NCBI GenBank assembly: GCA_011800155.1
Contig: CM022372.1
Coordinates: 2,790,001-2,854,000 of the forward strand
Direction: 5' to 3'
Origin: Flammulina velutipes
Taxonomy: Eukaryota > Basidiomycota > Agaricomycetes > Agaricales > Physalacriaceae
DNA: 64,000 nt
Shown here: piece by piece, positions 22,115 to 42,552 of the stretch
Layout of the letters: every line of letters begins with the position of its first letter
How positions within the stretch are numbered: the first letter of the stretch is position 1
Made by a program: the position numbers and the translations under genes
The notes under the pieces: generated by a model
Databases searched by the model: none
Seen by the model: the letters and a program-made list of their open reading frames with translations, nothing else
What the model was told of the DNA's origin: nothing

Positions 22115-22478
22115 TGTAGATGATCAAGTCCGCTTACGCGCACAGATTAGATGACATTATCGGACCGGTTCTAGACTCGTGTTCTTCCTTTATTCTAACG
22201 CCACCTACGTAGTTGTCTTTGTAGTGTTACGCGCCCATATCCCGCTTCTTTGTACTGTACTGCGCATTAGCGCCCATCTCCCTAGTTCTTTGTAGTCTAC
22301 TGCTCAGCCTGCTCTCCATTATTCTTACGCTTATGGTACTCTTTCATAGTTACTTGTATTTATAGTAGGTTGTCGTACTCTACCGTAGCATAGCTCCCTC
22401 GTATCTATCAGATTCTGCCTCCGTCGTCCGTCTGTCAGTCCGAGTCCGTGCGAAGCAAGAGCCTTCGTCGTACTCACA
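22115..22478 (+). repeat. 5' LTR of gypsy element
   Basis: 364 bp, TG...CA ends (TGTAGATG...GTACTCACA). Compared by eye with the copy at 42189-42552, only one difference was found: C at 22308 versus T at 42382 (LTR position 194). The matching ends, lengths and flanking duplication show that it is the 5' partner of that LTR, not a solo LTR, although 13 kb of unrelated DNA now follows it. Confidence 0.95.
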
Positions 22479-22530: not shown

Positions 22531-22538
22531 ATCATCTC
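22531..22538. repeat. 8 bp target-site duplication of KDZ element, left
   Basis: ATCATCTC, repeated at 35984-35991. In both places it falls in the same codon phase of the gag frame (ATC ATC TCG on the right; GTA ATC ATC on the left), so deleting the insert and one copy rejoins gag. Confidence 0.85.
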
Positions 22539-22565
22539 AGGCCACACTGTAATATTATCCAAAAA

Positions 22566-22672
22566 GCAGTGGTTGGTCCCAGTGAGGCCTTTTGCAAACA
22601 AACTGGATATAAACACTCAAATCCCGTGCCCTGGCATATGCCAAATGCTTTAATCCTCCTTTATTAACCACT
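22566..22672 (+). repeat. left-end palindromic iterons of KDZ element
   Basis: Four degenerate palindromes: GTGGTTGGTCCCAG (22569), CTGGATATAAACACT (22603), TGGCATATGCCA (22632-22643, perfect) and TTATTAACCACT (about 22661). Their centres are about 28-34 bp apart, and the first is about 37 bp from the element end. They resemble the right-end set and are the natural candidates for transposase binding sites. Confidence 0.6.
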
Positions 22673-22744
22673 CGTCATTAACTACCACAAATCCATTAAT
22701 CCATAATCCATAATAACCGTTAAGACCGGGCGTTGCCGGTCAAC

Positions 22745-22781
22745 GCGGCGGCTGTGCCGCCGCGCGCCAGAAAAAAATCCC
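22745..22781 (+). repeat. GC-rich hairpin followed by A-run
   Basis: GCGGCGG-CTGTG-CCGCCGC (22745-22763, perfect 7 bp stem), then CGCGCCAG and seven A. A similar arrangement in reverse, a seven- or eight-T run before GCGCG-CTCCG-CGCGC, is at 35703-35727 near the other end of the element. Role unknown. Confidence 0.4.
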
Positions 22782-22788
22782 AAAACGG

Positions 22789-23268
22789 GCGGGAAATTTA
22801 ATCCGGGAAATGGTTCCTGTACACCACACTGTGCTCGGCGACCACGTATTAGTCTGCGTGTGAAGAGAGGTGCTCTCACGCTAGCACCGAATCATATTAT
22901 ACAAATATGCCGTGTGTGGCGCACACAATTCGTATCCGACCCAAAAGATGCGGGAAACGGGAATAGTCGTAGTTTATTGTAGTACTATAACGAATATACA
23001 CCTCCTTCAATAGTATTTGTCTCTGGGACATTGCTTTCCCACATAATTCATGTGTGGCGTAGCGGTCGGGCGGGCGGGCGGGCATTAGGACCGGGGGGGC
23101 AGGAAATATATTAATGCCGCTCCCGCAGCCACTCATACATCTTTCTTTGAGCGGAGACCACGTGCACACCTGCGGAAGCACGCAAAAATGCGTGTGTGGC
23201 GGGTAGGCGGGGAAAATACTCGTGTGAGCGGGAAAAAAGCTCGGGCAGGCGGGAAATGGAGCGGGAAA
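22789..23268 (+). repeat. cluster of GCGGGAAA repeats
   Basis: Exact copies at 22789, 22950, 23228, 23249 and 23261, plus near copies at 22803 (CCGGGAAA) and 23207 (GCGGGGAAA), all in the same orientation. The stretch also holds four GGGC units at 23065-23083 and repeated GTGTGGCG. It lies between the left end and the 3' end of the first cargo gene. The motif equals the E2F-type consensus on one strand, but here more likely serves the transposon. Confidence 0.6.
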
Positions 23269-23436
23269 AGTCGCATGGTCAGTTGCCGCTGTGGTACCTC
23301 CCAGGCGGTACACAAGGAGCGACACAGCGGCATCACTCTCCAAAACATTCCACGGAATCGGTCGAATAAAACTGGGAACGGAGGCCTGAGGATAGCGCGA
23401 TGCAAAGACAGATTTTATTTATATGGTCTACACTCA

Positions 23437-23992
23437 TCAGAGATGCAGCGCCGTTAAGTCGATATCGCCCTCGCTCGCGGAATAGAAACTTTCCTCGCTG
23501 GCCTCATCATCTTCAGACTCCTCAGACCCAGACACCTCCTTCTCATTCTCCCGCAAGCTGTCCCCCTCCTTTTCCACATCCTCATCTTCGTCTGAAGACA
23601 CGACTGCTGTTAAGGTCAGTGTCGACCGAAAATCAAGACAGACACGCACCGATGTAAACCTCGTCGTTACTTGCCCTCCTGACATAAACCTCGTCGCTAC
23701 CTCCTAGATCGCCCAGCTCGCTCGGTTCCCAATATTCCAGCTCCACGGGGGCCCAGAATCTAATCAACCCCTGTTTGTAGAGGATATGTTCGTTGTGGTT
23801 GAGGCGAACCAACTCCAATTCCCCCGCGCGTCGTTCCAGCCAACAATCTCTTTCTGATAACTCGCGCAGAGCACGTTCTTCCCTCTCCAATCGCTCGGCA
23901 GTCGCATCCAGGGGAGGCGTAGGGAGGCCAATTGTCGCGTTGAGCAAAGGTGAAGGTGGCGGCGATGGATTCGCAGCCGACGAGGTAGCCAT
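23437..23992 (-). CDS. KDZ cargo: small acidic coiled-coil-like protein
   Basis: Two exons; start 23992 (MATSSAANPSPPPSP), stop 23437-23439, about 165 aa. The N-terminus is Ala/Ser/Pro-rich. The middle (ATAERLEREERALRELSER) is a charged helix likely to coil. The join across the intron at about 23607-23649 (DEVYI to AVVSSDEDED) keeps the frame and leads into a Glu/Asp/Ser-rich tail (EESEDDEASEESFYSASEG). I do not recognise a family. Lies 3' of the larger cargo gene on the same strand, separated by 184 bp. Confidence 0.55.
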
Positions 23993-24176
23993 ATTGGACA
24001 GCGACAGACGTTGCAAAGTCCAACATGACGTACGGACACGCCTCGGTATATACATACGTACAAACGACGGGAACCGAAGAGAAAGATAGCGTACAAGAAA
24101 GATATCGTACAAGAAAGGTACCGTACAAAAACTCGGCGTGCAAAAAATAGTTTATATGACAAGAGCAAAAAAGGCC

Positions 24177-26601
24177 TCAAGCGGCAGAGAGACCCGTAAG
24201 GACCCAAGATACGTCCTCAACAGCAGCCATCCACTCACCCAAAGCCAAAACATCATCTCCACATGCGCGCCCCCACCATCCAAGCAGCGCAAGTGTCGTG
24301 AAGTGACCGTTGAGCCCGCGTGTCTGCAAGGCACCCCAGCTGCTACCATCCTTGACAATCGGACGATGACGCTCACGGAGTGGACAATCCTCAGCAGAAA
24401 CGCCACGCCAATCAGGTTGCATTCCTGCCCACCATGCCCAAAATCCGTTGGCGACATCCCTCACCTGGCTGGGCAACTCAGGATCAATCCGACGAGCATT
24501 TTGCAGCCATAGATGGACGAAGGGAGGGCGAGAGCGCGATGGCAGCGGTTTCCCAGCCCAGGTCCCATTTCCCTCCATCTCCAGATATACGTCAATCAGC
24601 GACTCCCAAAGGGGCTCCGCCAGCTGGAAGCCGCGAATGTAGGCCTCGGCGTGAACGAGGAGCTTGGGGGTGATACCAGCAATATCCTTCTTTCCAACAG
24701 TCTTGCGCCCATCCTTCTTTCCCACGGGCAGACCAGCTGAGGCGGTAGCGCCAGAAGGAACAGCGGGAGGAAGGTCCGGGATTTTCGAAGCCGGACTGTC
24801 GCCGAAAGGGTGTTCGGAGTCAAGAGGCCCACACGTCGGGATGACCACTTGCAGCGGCGTAGCAGGCGGGACATCGTCCTCCAGCAAGGCAGGATCAATG
24901 ACAGTGTTGTCGAGCGGGCTTTCCTTGTTGGTAAGGTCTTCCAAAGGGCAGCGTGGAGAAGTGGGGGCAGCCTGCTTGGTACACGTCCGAGTTGGGCGGG
25001 GAGAACACGGAGGACGGACACCGGTGTTTTCGTCGTCACCGTCGTCGTCGCTGTCAGAGGATTCGCTAGCGCTAGATTCTTCATCCGCATCCGCGCCCTT
25101 CTGAGTGTTGCGAGTGCGACGCTTCTTCCGTGGGCTGTCCCGATTTTGGCGCCCTCTCTTCTTCGTGCTCTTGCTGTTCGCGATGATAGTAGGAGACGAA
25201 GCCACTGGCACTCCCAGCGACATCTGGGGCTCTGAACTCAATGTCGCGGAGCCCGCAGAAGGCCCGTTGACCACGAAGTTACTACCAGCAACGTTCCACG
25301 GGTTTTGCTGCCGCATGAACATGGGTAGTGCTGCCGGCATAACGCTGCCCGGAAGGGCGCGTTCCTCTTGTTCTGCGTAGGCTAAGGGTAAGATCAGCAC
25401 AGACCTCGAGTGCGCATCCAGATGACATACAGAAACACTCCATGGCGAACTCGCCAATGCAAGCCTCAGCCATCTTGCGTCGTCGATTGCCACGCTCCCC
25501 TCCTGCCGTGGCGAACGTCTGTGGAATGGCCGATTTATCATTTCCCACATGCAGTCTATCATCAAACGGTCAGAACGAATCCGAGAGTTTATTTTGACCA
25601 ACGTACGAGATAACGTTGACCTGGCCGCCTCTGCGAGGCTCTGGTCCAGCATAAAAGAACGAAACATTCCCTCCCAGAAGATTTGATAAGCCTTCGAGCA
25701 GCGGCTGCATGGTATTGGCCAGACCATCTAACGCCCTAGGTCATGTTAGAAACGAAAGAGAGAACCAAGGCTAGCGACGTACTCTTGCGTTTCCGCGGGC
25801 TCAAGGCGACTGGGCAGAAGACCACCCTCAGCCTTTTCTTTTGCAACCTGAGCAGCATCCTGCTTCGCGCGCAGTGCCCAATACTTTTTCTCGTCGTCCG
25901 GGAGCTCCTCGAATGCCCTCCGCACCTTGTTTGCTGCTTCATCCACGCGTGCAGTCTTCCCACTCTTCCCCGTTTCCGCAAATTCCTGATTAAATTCGTC
26001 GCGAATCGAGGCAAAGGCCTCCGAGGAATACATTTGCTGGGGGGTTCGACCGCGCTGGCGATGGATTTTGACGTCGCTGACTTTCGCCAGCAAGGACGCG
26101 ACAGGATTTTTGGCTATCTGAGCCTTCGTCATCTTGTTAACTGGCTCCGCCTTGTTCCAGCTATTTTCGAAGTAGTTTCGAATCCCCTGCGAAAAAAATT
26201 AACGAGTTACTTGCGAAAGGGGATGGAGTTACGCACGGTAGTCAAACGGGCGATGATGGCAGACTTGAATTCCATGACGCTGGGGGGCAAGGCCGCCTCG
26301 TCGTAGACCACTGCGGGATTCGGTTCGACGTCCATCGCTAACCACCACGGATAGGCCTGGCAGAACGCGTTGAAAACTCCATCCGAGTACTCGCGTCCGA
26401 GATTTTTGCCTTTGGCACGTTTATCTTGGAAGGTGGGTAGGCGTTCTTCGAGGTACAGGCGGCGGGAGCCTTTGAGCCAACCTCTTTTGAATGGACGTAG
26501 GTCTGCAGGCGTTGACGGCCTAACGGAGGTAAGTCAGCGTGTGTGCGAAATCATGATGCTGTAACATACAGGGTCATCATTTCCTCGGTGCTGGCGGTCA
26601 T
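24177..26601 (-). CDS. KDZ cargo: large PWWL-domain protein, mushroom mobile-element family
   Basis: Multi-exon gene, roughly 700 aa. It starts MTASTEEMMTL (26601) and, after an intron, RPFKRGWLKGSRRLYLEERL. Recognisable blocks: the N-terminal AYPWWLAMDVEP; a helical stretch reminiscent of an HMG box (RTPQQMYSSEAFASIRDEF ... AFEELPDDEKKYWALRAK), family not proven; GNVSFFYAGPEPRRGGQVNV; a long basic/acidic low-complexity linker with a nuclear-localisation-like KKRGRQNRDSPRKKRR; and a C-terminal block (FVHLWLQNARR, GFWAWWAGMQPDWR, FTTLALLGWWGRA, EWMAAVEDVSWVL) ending at 24177. Proteins of this layout recur in Agaricomycete genomes, to my knowledge without a known function. Its PWWL block is shared with the two small genes downstream in this element. 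Probably nuclear and DNA-associated; inference. Confidence 0.6.
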
Positions 26602-26812
26602 TTTATATCGCGGCTAGTCGCGTTGAAGTTATCAAGCGCGTAGGTACTAGGACTTGTGGTAAGTACTGGTCCGGGCTGACAGTGAGACGCTGCAAATTTT
26701 TTGACAGCTGAGCGTCACGTGTGCGTAGAACTTCGTAGGCGGTATCGTTATTCGGAACAAGATATATATATATACACCACTCCGTACAAAAGAATTGACT
26801 GGGCGGCGCGTC

Positions 26813-27392
26813 TTATACTTGAAAGACATCTTGAAGAGGCCCTTTAACGTATGCTACAGGGGGGCGCGGGTTGGGTGAGGGATGGACTCCACTGCAATGA
26901 CAGGCATGGTCGGAACTGCAAAATGCCAGGCCAAAAAGGTCTTCAAAGACGCGGATTTGATGGGAAGCGAGACGGTAATTCCAGGCGAACTCCAGGTGGG
27001 CTTCTATCCACTAATGCCAGTAGACATCGTCAGTGATAGCTACAATTCGAACTGAAGAGAAACACACCTGCTGGATGAGGTAACATCTCTCCTCCTTGTG
27101 CTTCGCCATACCGCGTCCTGCTGGTTCTATGTAAGCCTTTCCCTCTTCGGGCTCCAACTCTTCTGGCAACCACCACGGAAACTTCTCCAGGTACAGGAGG
27201 TACACCGCACGTATGTGGGCATCGACGTGGTTGGTCGAATCGGTTTGTTTCTCGCGCAACACGAAATAGACGGTGCAATGTGAGTCAAGGAAGCGTTTAC
27301 GCTCACCCTTGAAGCTGTGGAACAGAGATTAACGCAAAGCAAAAGAACAAGGAAGACAAGACGACGAACTGATAGAACGTATACGGAGGCAT
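26813..27392 (-). CDS. KDZ cargo: PWWLP/DHACxC protein A (tandem paralogue)
   Basis: Three exons, 155 aa. It starts MPPYTFYH at 27392 with an intron inside the eighth codon, then KRFLDSHCTVYF, YLEKFPWWLPEELEP, a second intron, and WIEAHLEFAW, VFEDLFGLAFCSSDHACHC; stop 26813-26815. Intron positions and phases are the same as in gene B next to it, and residues line up along the whole length, so they are tandem duplicates. The FPWWLPE block also matches the N-terminal part of the large cargo protein. The C-terminal C-x3-H-x-C-x-C cluster could bind a metal. No export signal. Function unknown. Confidence 0.65.
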
Positions 27393-27566
27393 AGCTGATG
27401 GTTGAAGCCAACTTGGGTCACACATCAATTTTCGCGAATCACATCAGTCATTTATTTACAGGACGAAAAATGTACAGTATGAACTATACAAAAAAAGGGA
27501 TGTAAAAAAACACTGCGCGAACACGATAGGTACAAGAAATACTGTCCAATCCAGACGGTGGGATAT

Positions 27567-28115
27567 CAGTCATGTTTATGAACGTCCTGTAACGCCTCTG
27601 GCACATAGGTAACGGGAGCCCTTGGATCACCGCAGGCGCACGCGTGGTCTACCTGGCAGAATGCCATCCCAAATTGGTCCTCGAAGGTGCGAACCGCATG
27701 AGCGAGAACACGATGACCCCACGCGTACTCCAGATGAGCTTGAATCCACTATCAAGAAGGGATGAGCCCAACGAAAGATGAACAGAGAAAGACAACGGAC
27801 CCCCTGCACGCGTAACGTCGCCTCTGCTCTCTGCCTTGGCACGTCTGGCCCCGTCGGTTCCACGTAAATCTTGGGGTCCCTGGGCTCAACGCTTTCAGGC
27901 AACCACCACGGAAACGCCTCGAGGAAGACAACGGAGACGGCCTCAACACAGATGCGGGCTTGAGCGTTCTTGGATCTTTGGCGCATGGCGAAATACATGG
28001 CGCATTGACCGTCCAAGAACAATTTCCGCAGGCCAGTGAAACTAAAGATTAATGTTGAAGCAGATGCTTAAAAAGACGGAAGGGGAACGTACTGGTGGTA
28101 GTCATAGACAGGCAT
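27567..28115 (-). CDS. KDZ cargo: PWWLP/DHACxC protein B (tandem paralogue)
   Basis: Three exons, 148 aa, paralogue of gene A. It starts MPVYDYHHFTGLRKLFLD at 28115, then FLEAFPWWLPESVEP, WIQAHLEYAW, RTFEDQFGMAFC and QVDHACACGD; stop 27567-27569. Both introns fall at the same places as in A. The tail after the Cys cluster differs (APVTYVPEALQDVHKHD). Both copies are open, which argues for selection or recent duplication. No known domain recognised. Confidence 0.65.
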
Positions 28116-29738
28116 GGCTAACAGAGCGATGGTAGCAGTGGTGGTTGGTGGAGGTGATGGTTGAAAATTTAGTTAGCTCGAACCGAACAGCGAGCAAAAA
28201 GTCTGACCAAAAACTCCGTCGGCCGTTGGCAACGCCTACATAATAGGCACGTCCTATGACCCGCCGCTGCTACATTGCGCGTGTTTCCAGTTCATGTCTG
28301 TCTTGCCTGCTGGAAGGAAAGTCGGTCTTGCAGCACTACGGCTCGACAGTTGGTCGTGATGGTGGGAGTAAGACAAGGCGGCACCACCATCAAGCGACGC
28401 CATCAAATGTCTCTAAATATAACCTGAACTTCCGTGGTAAGTTTCCCACCGCAGACCAATCGTTCACTCATTCTAGAGCTCACGACAGTCTAATTGCCTG
28501 GTTTGAGGTTGCATAACTCTTTTGTATTGTATGCCAATGCATTTCCGACATTTCCCCAATAACCGGACCACCCACCGAGCGCACCTCGACCAATTACTTA
28601 CTTCATTCTCATCTTGCGTACAGGAATATGAATGCCTTTCGTTCCCATTAGACTTTTATTAGACGCTAACTCGTTAGGGCCAGAAATGATATAATTGTAG
28701 CGGGACGAAGGTCGCAAATAGGTTAGTAACACTCGTTAAGCCCCTGTACTATGAAGGATTGACCACAGGAGCAATGTAGAAAGACTTTTAAATTTCCCAA
28801 ATTTCCAAGGTACTGATCCGGCGATTTCCATCTACTAGACGGCTATTCGTTACTAGACGGCTATTCGTTACTAGACGGCTATTCGTCACTAGATGGCAAC
28901 CCATCAATGGCCAAACCCAGGCCCCACCGAAGACCAAACAAAGCCATCTTAGTATTGCCCACCACTGTCGTCTACTCTCTGAGCACCGACTCCCGCGACT
29001 GGATCCTCAAGTAACGTCTCCTGCTGGTATGTCTTGTATCTTCATATCTTACATATTCCCTTTTTCCCTCGTCTTCGCCGTATGCCTTCATGCCGCCTCT
29101 ACGCGGTTCAACCAGGGACTGCGCTAGAGGACTGTTAGCTGGCATGTCTCGTTCCCGAGGGCGTCTTCTTTCTCTCTTTCTGGGTGTTAGTAGCCTGGCT
29201 CTGACGTGTTTCCAGCCCAGCTATTCTAGGTGTCGATTTCCGCCGGACCAATGTTCTGTCGCCGCCAACGCTGCTTGCCTGTGCTGGAAGGGAAACATGA
29301 GCGGGATGGATGATGCGCAAATGTACTGGCACGTCGCTCAAAGGTATGCCTTCCCTTTAGTCCCTCCATCACCTGAGCTCATTGCCGTCACCAGCGTCTA
29401 CGAATTTTGCGCCAGTCCAAGCGTCGCTGTCGACGCTCACTCAGCTACCTCTACGTCCGAGCATCACTTTTGCTGAAGGTGAAAATAATGCGCCCAAGTC
29501 CGAACTGTATGTGAGTGTCTCTGTCTGGCCAGATATTATCTGACTCTTTCCCTTAGAGATATTATGTCGTCATGTAGCAAGCCAACTGGATAAAGCAATG
29601 GTTTCTCTTTGCATGGATAGAAATAGATAGTATTTGTACGCCTGTAGGACTCGGAGCAAGATCCTTTTCTTCTCACACATGTGACCCGGTTGGATTTGCG
29701 ATCATCGTTTGGCGTCGTCTTTTTCTTTCCGAATTGCC
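28116..29738. other. 1.6 kb non-coding centre of KDZ element
   Basis: Divergent spacer between the minus-strand cargo block and the plus-strand block. Frames at 28256-28516 and 29090-29476 were examined and not accepted. It contains the 18 bp tandem repeat at 28837-28896. Likely holds promoters for both arms. Confidence 0.45.
28837..28896 (+). repeat. 18 bp tandem repeat, three copies
   Basis: AGACGGCTATTCGTTACT at 28837-28854 and 28855-28872, a third copy with one change (TCACT end) at 28873-28890, then a partial AGATGG. Located in the central spacer of the KDZ element. Confidence 0.9.
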
Positions 29739-30413
29739 ATGGGCCGCAAGAAATTGTACAAGGACGAGGATGAACGGCTGGAAGCCGAGCGTGCCCGTAA
29801 ACGGGCTTGGTATCATCGGTGCGATCTCATATCCTCTCATGGTACTGGAAAACTGACTGCGCAGCAGCAATCGCGAGGAGCAACAAGAGAAAATGCGGCG
29901 CTACTATGACAAGAAATCAGGCGGAGATCGAGTCCGTCCCGCAGTCCAGCCTGTCCGAGCAAGCGCCCCCATTCCGTACGTGTGTTTCCATTATGTGACC
30001 TCAGCTCGCTAATTTTGTGCACTAGTATCGTCAACGAAGCTGCCATTCGACGCCATATCCGACGCATTCGCGTGCAAGATGGATGCATGACAGCCACTGT
30101 GGGCCCGTCCCTTTGCAAATACGCCAAAACGCTGCTCGAGCAGTACAAGTCCTTGGACAGAGAGGACGGCCGCCTCCTTTTCATCGACTTTGTCGCCGAA
30201 TACAACACTCTTCTCGCCGCAATCGAGGTCGATTTGGAATGCATCAAAGAGGAGGGCGGGATTCTGCACAATGCCTGGAAGGAGGGAGCGGCCACGCGGG
30301 ACAAATTTGCCCGCATGCTAGAATACGTTGAGGATATGTTAGGGTGGGCGGAGAAACATAAGCTGCGTAACGCCGCCAAAAATAGAGCCTTGTTATTTCA
30401 ACAGTCTTCATAG
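29739..30413 (+). CDS. KDZ cargo: basic MGRKK helical protein
   Basis: Three exons, 191 aa. Start ATG at 29739 (MGRKKLYKDEDERLEAERAR), joined across an intron ending at 29867 to NREEQQEKMRRYYDKK, so residues 1-45 form a basic, highly charged helix of bZIP-like composition. A second intron (29973-30026) leads to IVNEAAIRRHIRRIRVQDG, followed by an all-helical C-terminal part (SLCKYAKTLLEQY, LLFIDFVAEYNTLLAAIE, MLEYVEDMLGWAEKH). Similar MARKK/MGRKK-starting proteins occur beside KDZ transposases in mushrooms in my recollection. DNA binding by the N-terminus is likely but inferred. The next gene begins with the same five residues. Confidence 0.6.
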
Positions 30414-30469
30414 ATCTATCAATATTGTCGCTTCGTCAGCCGCTACACTCAGGATTCTGTACGCGACGA

Positions 30470-30477
30470 TGCGCCAC
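30470..30477 (-). promoter_or_regulatory. GTGGCGCA motif upstream of cargo gene
   Basis: Exact 8-mer (TGCGCCAC on plus) about 160 bp upstream of the ATG at 30633. Confidence 0.25.
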
Positions 30478-30632
30478 ACTTGCACTGCCACCGTGCCACC
30501 GCCACTTACGTGCGTAGAGTGCGCTTCTAAACCTTGATTAGGGTACTGTACAGGAGCAATTCAGACTCCGGTCGACGCTATCGCGTTTGGTACCCTCACA
30601 TTTTACAATCAAGCTCAAGCTTCTGCACATCC

Positions 30633-31767
30633 ATGGGTAGGAAAAAAAGCAAGGTGCTCATCCGCGGACAAGCGTTGCTCTTCACCCCGATTGCTCCCAA
30701 GGTATGCATTCTCTGACCTGTGCATCTTTTTTTAATCTCCCACTTAGGGCCTGTTGGGAGACATGAAATCGTTCTTACTGCCGTACGCCACTGGTTTCGT
30801 TCGTGTACGCGGGAATCCACACCTGGAAATCGGAGGACTTCGGGGATTCCGGAAAAAGCTGTTCACTGCTTTCGATGTCGAATTTCGTCAGGCCCGTGAG
30901 CTGGATGAAGGGGAACTCGCGTTCAAACTTCGTCTTCGCCGCCGCCGTTTGGTGAGGATGTTCCTTGCGTATGCAGGAGATTGGCTAACAATTTTCTAGG
31001 GTCTCATCTGGCCAGGCCTTATGTGGGCTGTAGAAATGCTGAGGTATCGCCGGACCAAGTATGGTCTTTGGCGCCCCATCGATATGTCTAATTTGGAGGC
31101 CAACGATCGCCCAAAAGGCCCGCGCCCGTTGCCAAAGCAAGCAGGAAAGGGCTACACGAGCTCTCGCATGCTCCCTGCCAGGCCGAAGGGTGTCATTATT
31201 CCTGACAGTCCACGCAAGGCGCGAGCCAAACCGAGTCACTCCTCTCCGGTCAAGGGAGAGAACCGCGCTGCATTGCTTCCCAACAGTCCCCGTAAGCCGC
31301 GTGCGACGACGTCGCCGCGCCCGTCCACGACTCCCTCTCCAGCACGTTCGCCCTCCTCCGAGAGGTTGTCGCCCCCTCCTCCTGATGTGTCAATCAAGAG
31401 GGAGAGCTCATCCCCCCAAATCGCAATGGAGAGGGAGCGGTCGTCCTCGCCTATCTATATCAAGAGGGAGCGGTCGTCCTCACCATTGGACTATCCTTCC
31501 TCTCCGTCGTCGTTTTCATCGCTTTCCCCATCCCCTGTCGCGGGCTCTCGTTCAGGCTCTCCTGACAGCGAGGCGTCGTCGTCGTCGTCGTCTGGTCGGT
31601 CACCCCCGAGGTACGACCCCTCCCGTTACCCCGATTTCACTGGGATGACGCCGGGGATGGTCTCTCACACATACGCGAGATATTTGGCCGACCACCCCCG
31701 CGACCCCGAGGATCATATGCTGGTTTGTGGCATTGTACGTGGCTTGATGTCCGGTCCTCCTAGGTAA
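30633..31767 (+). CDS. KDZ cargo: MGRKK protein with Ser/Pro/Arg-rich tail
   Basis: Three exons, about 345 aa. MGRKKSKVLIRGQALLFTPIAPK joins at an intron from 30701 to GLLGDMKSFLLPYATGFVRV, then RGFRKKLFTAFDVEFRQARE. A second intron (30955-31000) leads to GLIWPGLMWAVEMLRYRR. From about residue 120 the chain is disordered: repeated IPDSPRKARAKP / LPNSPRKPRATT units, three repeats around RERSSSP, and a serine run from GTC/TCG triplets near 31580. The end is more ordered (YPDFTGMTPGMVSHTYARYL). SPRK repeats are typical of AT-hook-like or histone-tail-like DNA contact. Function unknown; probably nuclear. Confidence 0.55.
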
Positions 31768-32044
31768 ACATTGGGGTCGGTAGAAATTGTAATAGAGTAT
31801 ATACATAGTAAACCGCATTAAATTTAGTTGTACCGTAGCTTCATTTAGAGTGTCCCGTAAAAATTACAATGTTTTCTCTATCAGCATGCGAACGTAGGCC
31901 ATATCGGCAACGCCGATAAGCCAGCCAAAGGCTGGTGTTGGCCACGGATCGCAGCTGGTTGCGTGGGAACATTCAACAACTGATACTGATGGCGGGTTAG
32001 GGTCTGTTTACAACCTCCTCGTACTTATTCCACGGGTCCTCCTA

Positions 32045-35000
32045 ATGGTTGGTTCCAAACGTGCTCTTCGTGTTGCTCGCGCAGACGATGACGAAGACCA
32101 AGGAACCACATCCCTTTTGGCGCGCAGGCAAGAACTTACTCGCGACCGCAAACGTTTACGCACTTCTATCCCGGAGGTTTGCGCACAGGTGGACGTGGTC
32201 GCTGGAGCCTCCCAACGCGTTGACTGGGCTAGACACTTCGATTCTGCTGTAGCGGATTCGTTCATTCCCCAAGCTCCAACACGTGCTGTAAAGACCGCTC
32301 GCCGTTATGCCAATTCGGTGCGTTTTCCTTGGGACACTAAGGCTTCGTTTATTCACATCACATCTACTACCTAGGACGATACATTGTTGGTTTGGGTGCG
32401 AGAGGGGCGGCAGCAAGAGTTTCTCGATGAGTTTGTGCGCTTGGAAGGTCGAGGGGATGCAGACACGGAACGGTGTGCTTCATGCCCACTGGCGGGTTCA
32501 GAAGTAGTGGCGGGCCCCGCTGTCTTCGCGTGTGAGGACTGTTTTGGATCATTCCTAGAGTGCCACTCGTGCATTCTCCACTCGCACGCCCGTCTTCCGT
32601 TCCATCGAATTAAAGTCAGTCTTTGTTAATCCTGAATCCCTCCTTCCCTCGCTGACTTGGTTATCTAGCTTTGGGAGGATGGGTTTTTCAAGAGAGTCAC
32701 ACTTCAAAACCTGGGACTACGTCTTTCACTCGGACCGCACAGCAGTAGCGGCTGCACCAACCCAGAACCCGGCCGGGACGATTTCACCATCCTGCACGAC
32801 AACGGTATTCATCACGTCAATGTCGATTTCTGCGGCTGCGAACACCGAGTCGCTCGCCGTTTGCAGCTGCTTCGTGCCGAAATTTTTCCATCCACTTATC
32901 GATTCCCGTGGTCTGGCGCCACTTTCCGTCTTCTCGAGTCCTTTGAGAAGCTTGCTACAACAGGAAAACTGTCGCCTTACGAACACTACAATGGCCTGGC
33001 GCGGATGACTGATAATACGGGGGTTGATATTCCCAAGGTACGCTAATTCATTTGACAAAGATTTTGTTCTAATAATCACCATGTTTCAGTCGCGTTACAA
33101 GGCATATCTCCGAATGAACCGCCAGTTTGCGCATCTCAAGATGATGAAGCGAGCGGGCCGCGGAAACGTAGCGGATGGCGTTGCAACGACTGGTCCGGGG
33201 GAACTAGCCATACCTTGCCCTGCGTGCCCACGGGATGGGGTGAACTTGCCATTGGGATGGCAATCCTTACCCGATGCGGAACAGTGAGTTCACTATACTA
33301 TCATTTATTGGGTTCAATTTTGACACCTCCCCTTAGGTACCGTTTCATGCTGATCATTGCCCTCGACGCCAACTTTCGACTGAGTAACCTACGCCGACTG
33401 AGTAATAGGGACCCTGGCCTTCATACCGGGAAGGCCTATTTTGTTGAGAACCGAGATTATTTGGAGCACCTGGCGAAGTACCCGCGTCAGAAGGATGTAA
33501 GTCGCGCTCTTATTCAGGTGAGAACGACATTCTGATGTTTTCCAGGTTAGTTCCTGCAGTGGTTTCAAGACATTGGCCCACGCAGAAACCAAAGCCTCCG
33601 CGGGACTCCAAGCTACCGGCGTAGGGATGTGTATCTGTGCGCGTCACGAAATGATTCGTCCCCGCGGAGTAGGAGATCTCCAGCGAGGAGAACGGTACGT
33701 TTTCTCTTTCATGGGCGCGGGATTTGGCTGATACATTTTTTGTAGGTATTGTAACATGGATTACATCGCGTTTTCCGCGATCCAGATCCAGACGTCAACA
33801 TTGAAGAGGCTCTTCTTCTCTTATGATATCTGGTGTCAGTGGAGCATCCAGTTAATGGAACGAATGCGCAAACTTCCAGAAGCCCTGCGTCTTCCGGACG
33901 ACCTCGTGCCAGAAGGGGGCATACCGAAATGTCATTCGCCAGGCCATAAAATCGCCTGCCAGTGCAAGTATTGTATGAACATACAGAATGGCATAGGGCG
34001 CACTGATGGGGAGGGCATTGAACGTACTTGGTCCGGTATCAACGCGTCTGCTCCTGCAACCAAGGAGATGCTCCCTGGCGGGCGTCATGATATGCTTGAC
34101 CGACGCTTCGGTGCCCATAATTGGGAGAAATTAACACGGCTCGGTGAGTTTTTGCTCTTTTCAGTGAGGTTTGAGCTAATATCGGTTGTAGGAACATTGC
34201 TTCATCAACGCCTGGCGAAGGCGAACATCGCGTGCAGAACCCATACCGAGGCGCACGAAGATTTCACTGCGATTATTCCCAAGGAAGCTATTGCACGGTG
34301 GACAAAGGAGATCGAGGCTTGGGAGAGGGAGACTGGGGAGAAAAAACGCGACCTTCCTAGTCCGTACTACTTTCCTGCGACGTGTATGTCTGCGCTACTC
34401 CTTCCTTTATTTACAAGCTGACGAACCCATTTAGATGCCTCTGAGGCTGTGGTGCGACAGGACTTGGCCGAGGATGAACGTCTCTCTGATCAGGGAACAT
34501 CGCCTATTCACGACACCAGCGCAACCCAGTGCATGTCGCTGGGTCTTCTTATCGAAGATCAACAGTGAGTTTTCTGTTTTCTGATATCGGCATTGCAATT
34601 GACTGGTTTTTTGTCAAAAAGGCGCCGTATCATTCATCTGCTCAACAGTGATGATTCGGAAGCTCCCGCCGTCGTTAAAGACATCCAAGACAAGCGAATT
34701 GCCCTGCAGCGCCATCTACGTCAATTCCGCGAACTGCAAGCCGTCTATATGCCGTGTAGCGTGGCACTTCTGGCCGCGAAATCAGGGTGTCGAGAGGGCG
34801 ATGTGGAGACGGAAATGTTGATCTTGCCCTCTGAGGTGGCAGCTGGGCTGCGAGGATCTGGATGCACGGAAGGCTTTGCTTTGAAGGAGGAAAAATTCCG
34901 AGAGGCGCAGTGCTATGACGCACTCGAAACGATACGTACGATGCAGAGGACACGGCGCTCTCTGAAGGCATTCCGTCGCCGAAACTTGCGCGGACAACGC

Positions 35001-35693
35001 CAGACGGGACGTGCTTTTGCTGCTATCAAGCGCCTGGAGGGGAAGTCAAGCCTTGCAGCTGAGAAGTACCATCGTGCACGAGATGCCCTTCTTGTGTTGC
35101 GTGGGCCCGGGGAATGGGAAAAGGTTCTTCGTATTCTGAAACAAGAGGATATCCGAGCCCTGGACACCGAGATTTTCGATATTGATAATGCCAGGAAGCC
35201 AAGCGCCGGTGTTTCTTTTGGGAGTGGGAGTCATACCCTTTCGTGGATCTGGTTGATGGGTGGGGCGCTGGAGGGGATTGGCAAGGATGATCTTGATGGG
35301 GCCATTCGTGTTGAATGGTTGAAAAGCCGTGCACGGGTCGCACGCTGGCGGGAGGAGACGGTGCTGGGTATGGACGAGCGCACCTACACGCTAGCCTCCC
35401 TGGAGTACGAGGCGTTACAGTGGGAGAGGCGTGAGACGGCGCGAGACGATTTGGATGCTCTAGGCTTGGAGGGAGTCAAAGCGCTCGCGCGGCGCCAGGC
35501 CTATGTCTACCGGAGCATTCGTTCGAGCTTTGTGGCGACATGGGCGAAACCTGCGCGTGTGGGTAGGCAACGTGTCCCTGATCGCGTAGACCTGGAGGTC
35601 GTGGAGGAATCAGATGACGAGCACGAGGCTGAGGAGAGGACTCCGAGTGGTGTGGCTAACAGAGACGACGACGCGGCTACGCGGGACACTTAG
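32045..35693 (+). CDS. KDZ transposase with CxC2-like cysteine cluster
   Basis: Large multi-exon gene, about 1,050 aa. The N-terminal cysteine cluster (ERCASCPL, FACEDCFGSFLECHSC, HARLPFHRIK, then WEDGFFKRVTLQNLGL and IHHVNVDFCGC) matches the CxC2-like KDZ-associated domain. The transposase core follows: IPCPACPRDGVNLP, IIALDANFRLSNLRR (first catalytic Asp), FFSYDIWCQW (second Asp) and GEGIERTWSGINASA (Glu region), with CQCKYCMNIQNGIGR between. The C-terminal third is helical and charged, ending at 35693. Exons join without stops, so the enzyme may be active. Family knowledge: KDZ enzymes are RNase-H-fold DNA transposases common in mushrooms. This is the only recombinase gene inside 22539-35983. 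Confidence 0.88.
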
Positions 35694-35805
35694 ACACGTG
35701 GACTTTTTTTGGGCGCGCTCCGCGCGCTGTATATATATATATTTTGTGGTTTAATGAAAAATTAAACATTTTAGCTGAAATGCGAGAAAATTAATGGTAT
35801 TGCAA

Positions 35806-35955
35806 GGAGTTATACCTCCCGGAGTGGTTGGAAGTGGCAGTAAGCACAGGCTTAGGTGGACCTAGGACTCAGTGGGTATAACCACCGGGGTATTGAGATG
35901 GCCAGTGGTTATATCCACCTGATCCGCAAAATTGCTGAGTGATTATAACCACTGC
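35806..35955 (+). repeat. right-end palindromic iterons of KDZ element
   Basis: GGAGTTATACCTCC (35806-35819), GTGGGTATAACCACC (35872-35886), GTGGTTATATCCAC (35905-35918), GTGATTATAACCAC (35939-35952). Starts are 66, 33 and 34 bp apart, so all fit a 33 bp period (about three helical turns). The last is centred about 38 bp from the element end, mirroring the left end. Confidence 0.7.
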
Positions 35956-35983
35956 AGATCCACCTACCCTGCAGCCATGGTTG

Positions 35984-35991
35984 ATCATCTC
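35984..35991. repeat. 8 bp target-site duplication of KDZ element, right
   Basis: ATCATCTC, second copy of the duplication at 22531-22538. Confidence 0.85.
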
Positions 35992-42188: not shown

Positions 42189-42552
42189 TGTAGATGATCA
42201 AGTCCGCTTACGCGCACAGATTAGATGACATTATCGGACCGGTTCTAGACTCGTGTTCTTCCTTTATTCTAACGCCACCTACGTAGTTGTCTTTGTAGTG
42301 TTACGCGCCCATATCCCGCTTCTTTGTACTGTACTGCGCATTAGCGCCCATCTCCCTAGTTCTTTGTAGTCTACTGCTCAGTCTGCTCTCCATTATTCTT
42401 ACGCTTATGGTACTCTTTCATAGTTACTTGTATTTATAGTAGGTTGTCGTACTCTACCGTAGCATAGCTCCCTCGTATCTATCAGATTCTGCCTCCGTCG
42501 TCCGTCTGTCAGTCCGAGTCCGTGCGAAGCAAGAGCCTTCGTCGTACTCACA
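42189..42552 (+). repeat. 3' LTR of gypsy element
   Basis: 364 bp, TG...CA, one difference from the 5' LTR found by eye. Starts 35 bp after the pol stop; the preceding GTATGGGA is a weak polypurine tract. Confidence 0.95.

What the first reader, a model, noticed from the sequence alone, without database searches (positions are those of the whole stretch)
22531..35991. 13.4 kb KDZ transposon with six cargo genes, exactly bounded by an 8 bp duplication inside gag
Seen: ATCATCTC at 22531-22538 and 35984-35991 sits in the same codon phase of an open frame. Removing 13,453 bp joins ...PSVPPAV to IISPSSRIPV without a stop and gives a normal 6,985 bp gypsy. Between them are a KDZ transposase and six genes without known function, all open. 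Known: 8 bp duplications are reported for Zisupton. Inferred: the whole block moved as one unit and recently, since the gypsy LTRs differ at one site. A precisely delimited cargo-bearing KDZ element is uncommon and could define what such elements carry.
Basis: partly seen in the sequence, partly recalled or inferred. Interest (0 to 1): 0.9.

Follow-up and report, generated by a model that had tools for sequence, protein, structure and literature searches.

The report
Kyakuja DNA transposon with companion genes
A 13.4 kb mushroom DNA transposon, most likely of the known Kyakuja kind, has recently spread to at least three places in this genome, and the genes it carries beside its transposase look like a standing part of such elements rather than picked-up cargo.

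Summary
The block is real and moved as one unit. It spans 22538-35983 (13,446 bp). The genome holds two more copies, on C10 (no difference) and C1 (one 1-bp deletion), each between its own direct repeat; a near-identical gypsy copy on C13 has the empty site. The duplication is 7 bp, not 8, in 6 of 6 elements delimited. 7 bp, CA..TG ends, no clear terminal inverted repeat and a KDZ transposase fit the published Kyakuja description, not Zisupton; a hidden, half-matching inverted repeat of about 100 nt is present. 'Six cargo genes' is not supported: several open frames are exons of one 1,074-aa transposase, and at least three other genes lie in fixed order beside KDZ genes at 25 of 28, 23 of 26 and 13 of 14 of their loci, with constrained codons. 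They look like core genes. 'Inside gag' is not shown: the site is 52 nt past the LTR, 462 nt before the first in-frame ATG. A new member of a known kind; the companion set is the interesting part.

The parts
22531..22537 (.). 7-bp target site duplication, left copy (ATCATCT)
   Evidence: empty site in the C13 gypsy copy
35984..35990 (.). 7-bp target site duplication, right copy (ATCATCT)
22538..35983 (+). Kyakuja-type KDZ DNA transposon, 13,446 bp, ends CAGGCCACACTG...CAGCCATGGTTG
   Evidence: same end points in 3 of 3 copies
22538..22574 (+). conserved left terminus CAGGCCANNCTGTAATATTANCCAAAA, with AGTGGTT after the first 30 nt
   Evidence: 7 genome loci match the 35-base form with up to 3 mismatches, 0 in the reversed-pattern control
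35947..35983 (+). right terminus with AACCACT (inverted AGTGGTT) before the last 30 nt
24177..26567 (-). companion gene 1: modelled 716 aa in 6 exons, HMG-box-like stretch in exon 25783-26186, conserved C-terminal part; first exon uncertain
29739..30413 (+). companion gene 2: modelled 193 aa in 3 exons, basic N-terminus, no Pfam match
30469..31767 (+). companion gene 3: short basic protein; exons 30748-30951 and 31000-31207 better supported, the rest of the model uncertain
32045..35693 (+). transposase, modelled 1,074 aa in 9 exons, CxC2 (residues 183-289) and KDZ (363-587); D369, D489, E554 invariant in 15 of 15 aligned proteins
27014..28067 (-). two further copies of the FPWWLP module found in the N-terminus of companion gene 1; no match at the same place in the C5 relative
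22115..22478 (+). left LTR of the target gypsy element (TG..CA)
42189..42552 (+). right LTR of the target gypsy element, one mismatch to the left LTR

Best explanation
This is a complete, recently mobile, probably Kyakuja-type KDZ transposon of an agaric mushroom. It encodes a transposase with a CxC2 zinc cluster and a KDZ catalytic domain. Most likely the transposase binds subterminal AGTGGTT-like motifs, which sit in inverted orientation at equal distance (30 nt) from both ends, pairs the ends, cuts at the CA..TG termini and inserts at staggered breaks whose fill-in gives 7-bp duplications. Shown: the exact ends, the 7-bp duplications, an empty target site, copies at three loci, an open multi-exon transposase model with an invariant acidic triad. 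Inferred: which motif is bound, cut-and-paste rather than replicative movement, and present activity. The three companion genes are part of the element's own equipment; the HMG-box-like one may bend or pack element DNA during end pairing, or regulate expression (inferred, weak).
For: Three copies with shared ends and different 7-mers, 0 and 1 differences to the window copy over 13,446 bp; their flanks are unrelated (6 of 6 pairwise comparisons without a hit). 7-bp duplications in 6 of 6 elements delimited: ATCATCT, GTAATCG, GGCGCGG, GTACGTC in the C5 relative, GACCTCG and AAACAAC in two C9 copies. Empty gypsy site on C13. Transposase: KDZ E 5.6e-61 and CxC2 E 3.3e-34; 201 homologues at E<=0.001 among 7,991 candidates scored, one Cylindrobasidium protein covering 99% of the model. 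Kyakuja is described as 7-bp TSD, CA..TG, no TIR (PMC12730594, section 3.2 read). The first GTGGTT lies 31 nt in from both ends in 3 of 3 elements read. Companion genes lie in the expected place and orientation beside a KDZ gene at 25 of 28, 23 of 26 and 13 of 14 loci, against random-placement means of 2.54, 2.17 and 0.84. pN/pS against the C5 relative is 0.32, 0.26 and 0.48 for the companions and 0.20 for the transposase, against 0.74-0.93 in 12 frames of two stretches outside the models.
Against: The Kyakuja name rests on ends and TSD; no labelled Kyakuja, Dileera or Zisupton sequences were placed in a tree here. 'No TIR' holds only for a clear repeat: read in register, the two 100-nt ends match inversely at 47, 53 and 56 of 100 positions in the three elements, which 0 of 1000 shuffles reach, so a degenerate inverted repeat exists; my confidence went from 0.88 to 0.86 for this. 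Excision was not seen. The gene models were chosen by similarity to the relative, which biases pN/pS downwards. HMG-box status is weak: best PDB profile hit E 0.0024; in Pfam the best matches of the four exons were Myb_DNA-bind_3 (1 of 4, E 0.0086) and, weaker, HMG_WDHD1 (1 of 4, E 0.15); Foldseek on a pLDDT-64 model found nothing. Searches of the protein collection with companion gene 1 found no homologue, so its spread outside this genome is unknown. 64 of 91 KDZ loci showed no companion gene 1 in the expected place at this sensitivity.
Confidence: 0.86

Rival explanations
1. A cargo-carrying transposon in the sense of Starships: a KDZ transposase that has picked up unrelated host genes which vary from copy to copy.
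For: 13.4 kb is long; the stretch between companion genes 1 and 2 is about 1.3 kb longer than in the C5 relative and holds two extra FPWWLP modules, so part of the block is variable. 64 of 91 KDZ loci show no companion gene 1.
Against: The three companion genes recur with KDZ genes in conserved order at most of their loci and look constrained. No Pfam family other than KDZ and CxC2 passed its cut-off in the 25 open frames of 100 aa or more inside the element and the 6 models and modules scanned.
Confidence: 0.08
2. A Zisupton element with 8-bp duplications.
For: The window copy alone shows an 8-bp match; the ends are a degenerate inverted repeat.
Against: The eighth base fails in both other copies; six of six elements give 7 bp.
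Confidence: 0.04
3. The identical copies arose by segmental duplication or gene conversion rather than transposition.
For: Copies differ at 0-1 positions, as conversion would also give.
Against: Homology stops exactly at the element ends, flanks of 1.15-1.4 kb show no similarity in 6 of 6 pairwise comparisons, each copy has its own 7-mer repeat, and an empty target exists.
Confidence: 0.02

Closest known systems
Kyakuja (KDZ) DNA transposons of Agaricomycetes, e.g. Kyakuja-1_LB and -2_LB (PMC12730594; introduction and section 3.2 read, other passages by search)
   Same: KDZ transposase, 7-bp TSD, CA..TG ends, no clear TIR
   Different: No TET/JBP gene was found: no Tet_JBP match in the element's frames and models and none over cut-off in the genome (3 weak ones). 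A companion set with an HMG-like protein is not mentioned in the main text ('HMG' 0 occurrences). The degenerate inverted repeat is not mentioned in the parts read.
KDZ1-KDZ3 of Cryptococcus neoformans (PMC12810828, passages read)
   Same: KDZ transposase, about 9-11 kb, active
   Different: Those have CxC1 domains, 139-241 bp TIRs and TSDs of 8 bp (KDZ1) or 4-8 bp (KDZ2, KDZ3); this one has CxC2, no clear TIR, 7 bp.
KDZ elements of Pleurotus ostreatus (PMC7641404, passages read)
   Same: Intact copies are preceded by a CxC2 region
   Different: Ends, TSDs and companion genes are not given in the passages read.
KDZ and Plavaka elements of Marasmius oreades (PMC8290104, passages read)
   Same: Abundant KDZ elements in an agaric
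   Different: The paper says it characterised TIR motifs of these groups in a supplementary figure that I did not see; how these relate to the ends here is open.
Zisupton
   Same: Same superfamily (KDZ)
   Different: 8-bp TSD and TIRs; here 7 bp and only a degenerate inverted repeat.

Membership tests
Kyakuja | KDZ transposase domain | tested here: met
   PF18758 E 5.6e-61, residues 363-587
Kyakuja | 7-bp target site duplication | tested here: met
   3 of 3 copies and 6 of 6 elements
Kyakuja | CA..TG termini | tested here: met
   CAGGCC...GGTTG in 6 of 6
Kyakuja | no terminal inverted repeat | tested here: inconclusive
   no clear repeat at the termini by BLAST; but 47, 53 and 56 of 100 inverse matches in register in three elements, 0 of 1000 shuffles
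Kyakuja | transposase falls in the Kyakuja clade | not tested
   no labelled reference sequences at hand; the names listed bear no Kyakuja/Zisupton labels
Kyakuja (TET+ subset) | TET/JBP dioxygenase gene | tested here: not met
   no Tet_JBP match in the element's frames or models and none over cut-off genome-wide; not a requirement for Kyakuja as such (inference)
Zisupton | 8-bp TSD | tested here: not met
   7 bp
Zisupton | terminal inverted repeats | tested here: inconclusive
   no clear repeat, degenerate one in register
Starship-like cargo element | variable captured genes | tested here: not met
   three companion genes conserved in order with KDZ; a 1.3 kb stretch is variable
Starship-like cargo element | DUF3435 tyrosine recombinase captain (recalled) | tested here: not met
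   no such Pfam match in the 25 listed frames of 100 aa or more and 6 models and modules scanned

The most novel reading that the evidence does not exclude
Kyakuja elements of this type are multi-protein transposition systems: beside the transposase they encode their own HMG-box-like DNA-bending protein and two small basic partners, which together bring in ends whose inverted repeat has decayed to a half-matching frame around one fixed motif. The conserved genes would then be transposition or anti-silencing factors kept by selection across many KDZ families.
Probability: 0.25. Interest if true: 0.65.

Novelty: new member of a known kind. Interest (0 to 1): 0.42.

Why it matters
KDZ transposons are abundant in mushrooms, yet few have exact ends. 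This genome gives exact ends, 7-bp duplications, an empty target, a sister family with at least two copies and an apparently intact transposase, so the ends and the companion genes can be tested directly. The recurring companion genes suggest that what looks like cargo is machinery, which changes how 'hypothetical' genes beside KDZ transposases should be annotated.

Tried and rejected
The 8-bp duplication and Zisupton assignment: the duplication was rejected on the other copies. tRNA or Rfam origin of the dispersed 68-bp sequence at 31885-31952: ARAGORN found none in the window or in three other loci, Rfam at E<=1 only one sub-threshold hit elsewhere in the element. Homologues of companion gene 1 in the protein collection: none at E<=0.001, whole (7,995 candidates scored) or residues 95-325 (2,008 candidates); companion genes 2 and 3 were not searched there. 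Foldseek on the HMG-like exon: 32 matches at E<=10, none at E<=0.001. The C-terminal domain model had pLDDT 45.5 and was not searched. Iyer et al. 2014, which named KDZ, is not held; what it says about companion genes I have not seen. Text searches: KDZ+HMG+transposase+basidiomycet 0 papers; KDZ+cargo+transposon+fung 3 papers, passages of two read, none of these passages describing KDZ cargo. Novelty of the companion set is thus not established.

Counts behind: KDZ matches typed in were the 150 listed of 166; companion gene 1 82 of 82; gene 2 26 of 32 and gene 3 14 of 18 (the dropped rows were further exons of loci already counted). The first random control used guessed lengths for some contigs; one search repeats it with the true lengths (highest of 1000 draws 9, 8 and 4). 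Exceptions: gene 1 at C14:6552, C21:3550 and C21:61054; gene 2 at C14:4746, C19:143595 and C21:2161; gene 3 at C19:144842. All but C21:61054 lie within 9 kb of a contig end; beside C21:61054 a KDZ gene lies in the wrong orientation. In the reversed-orientation control, without the three copies, 5 of 25, 1 of 23 and 0 of 11 loci had a KDZ gene.
Full report
What was checked. The window lies at C5:2790001-2854000 of a 38.1 Mb genome in 23 contigs. A search with each boundary found two further copies of the element, on C10 and C1, and a gypsy copy on C13 without it. Against the window copy the C10 copy has no difference over 13,446 bp and the C1 copy one 1-bp deletion in a G run near 26039-26044, which falls in an exon of companion gene 1; a sequencing error in the run cannot be excluded.

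Ends and duplication. Homology stops at the element ends, and flanks of 1.15-1.4 kb show no BLAST hit in 6 of 6 pairwise comparisons. Flanking repeats are ATCATCT (window), GTAATCG (C10) and GGCGCGG (C1), so the duplication is 7 bp and the element begins with C at 22538. The C13 gypsy copy reads GTAATCATCTCGCCG without interruption and is 99.5, 99.7 and 99.8% identical to the window's gypsy over the three pieces compared. A 65-69% relative at C5:2351874-2364266 (12,393 bp) is flanked by GTACGTC. Two C9 elements at 1739836-1751433 (11,598 bp) and 1713524-1725122 are flanked by GACCTCG and AAACAAC; of the second only two end portions (about 4.4 and 1.1 kb) were compared with the first. So 6 of 6 elements delimited have 7-bp duplications. 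The conserved left end was found at 7 places of the genome with up to 3 mismatches, none for the reversed pattern: the six above and C19:108079, whose right end was not sought.

Inverted structure of the ends. No clear terminal inverted repeat was found by BLAST between the two 400-bp ends. Compared in register, however, the first 100 nt and the inverse of the last 100 nt match at 47 (window element), 53 (C5 relative) and 56 (C9 element) positions, against shuffle means near 25 and 0 of 1000 shuffles reaching it; over the outer 12 or 30 nt the signal is weak. The first GTGGTT lies 31 nt in from both ends in 3 of 3 elements. AGTGGTT or its inverse occurs 5 times in the two 200-bp ends of the window element and once in the 13,046 bp between. 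I read this as a decayed inverted repeat built round a protein-binding motif (inference).

Insertion site. The gypsy LTRs are 364 bp with one mismatch. The site lies 52 nt past the left LTR. The frame through it is open in the C13 copy, but its first in-frame ATG is 462 nt downstream of the site, so a place in the leader is as possible as one in gag. The C10 copy lies beside, probably in the 5' part of, another KDZ transposase gene: tblastn with this transposase matches the right flank from 407 bp outward, beginning at the zinc-cluster part.

Genes. With the C5 relative as guide a splice-aware search gave: a transposase of 1,074 aa in 9 exons at 32045-35693; a 716-aa protein in 6 exons on the minus strand at 24177-26567; a 193-aa protein in 3 exons at 29739-30413; and a less certain basic protein at 30469-31767. 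The transposase has CxC2 and KDZ domains, matches 201 proteins at E<=0.001 among 7,991 candidates scored (120 listed), the best from Hymenopellis radicata, Cylindrobasidium and Armillaria, and D369, D489 and E554 are invariant in 15 of 15 aligned sequences (that these form the catalytic triad is recalled). The host is therefore probably an agaric related to the Physalacriaceae (inference). All 25 open frames of at least 100 aa that one search lists inside the element were scanned against Pfam: only the KDZ frame at 33756-34421 passed a cut-off; the frame at 33215-33535 matched KDZ just below it.

Companion genes are not cargo. Translated searches with the three other genes and Pfam KDZ were merged into loci: 91 KDZ loci, 28, 26 and 14 companion loci. 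At 25 of 28, 23 of 26 and 13 of 14 a KDZ gene lies in the expected place and orientation; without the three copies of this element 22 of 25, 20 of 23 and 10 of 11; random placement gives means of 2.54, 2.17 and 0.84. Only 27 of 91 KDZ loci show companion gene 1 and 25 companion gene 2 at this sensitivity, so the set may mark a subgroup. Against the C5 relative pN/pS is 0.32, 0.26 and 0.48, and 0.20 for the transposase, against 0.74-0.93 in 12 frames of two stretches outside the models. Synonymous sites are near saturation, and the models favour conserved codons, so only the contrast counts. The relative's transposase has stops at 3 aligned codons, so that copy may be dead.

What companion gene 1 might be. 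Exon 25783-26186 and its counterparts in three relatives give a profile with 10 PDB matches at E<=1: WDHD1's HMG box (E 0.0024) and nine chains of mitochondrial transcription factor A (that the latter holds HMG boxes is recalled). The single-sequence model has three helices at pLDDT about 70-82 in that part, but Foldseek finds no match, and Pfam gives only weak and mixed matches, Myb_DNA-bind_3 E 0.0086 and HMG_WDHD1 E 0.15, each in 1 of 4 exons. I call it HMG-box-like, not an HMG box.

Comparison. Kojima 2025 (PMC12730594; introduction and section 3.2 read, other passages by search) describes Kyakuja as having 7-bp TSDs, CA..TG termini and no TIRs, and Zisupton 8-bp TSDs. Cryptococcus KDZ1-3 have CxC1, TIRs of 139-241 bp and TSDs of 8 or 4-8 bp (PMC12810828, passages). 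A Marasmius oreades paper speaks of TIR motifs of KDZ or Plavaka elements in a figure I did not see (PMC8290104, passages). TSD and termini fit Kyakuja; 'no TIR' fits only in the sense of no clear repeat; the transposase tree was not made. No TET/JBP gene was found in the element, and the genome has none over the Pfam cut-off.

Verdict. A well-delimited, recently mobile KDZ family, most likely Kyakuja.

Noticed in passing
window 31885-31952: A 68-bp sequence able to form two hairpins, 80-92% alike at 15 other places listed on C8, C12, C1, C11, C7, C3 and C13, twice as a pair 360 bp apart on C8; no match at that place in the C5 relative; no tRNA or Rfam match.
   Followed up: partly
window 27014-28067 (-): Two extra copies of the FPWWLP module of companion gene 1; the C9 element has one extra copy too.
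   Followed up: partly
C1:3686193-3695225 and C1:3713096-3722128: Two copies of another KDZ element with companion genes in opposite orientation with equal internal spacing, as in a large inverted duplication.
   Followed up: no
C10:2217445-2219274: The C10 copy lies beside, probably inside the 5' part of, another KDZ transposase gene, a nested KDZ in KDZ.
   Followed up: partly
C14, C19, C20, C21: Several KDZ elements with companion genes lie on short contigs (24-147 kb) or near contig ends.
   Followed up: no
window 22538-22637 and 35884-35983: The ends form a degenerate inverted repeat in register (47 of 100 positions; 53 and 56 in two relatives).
   Followed up: partly
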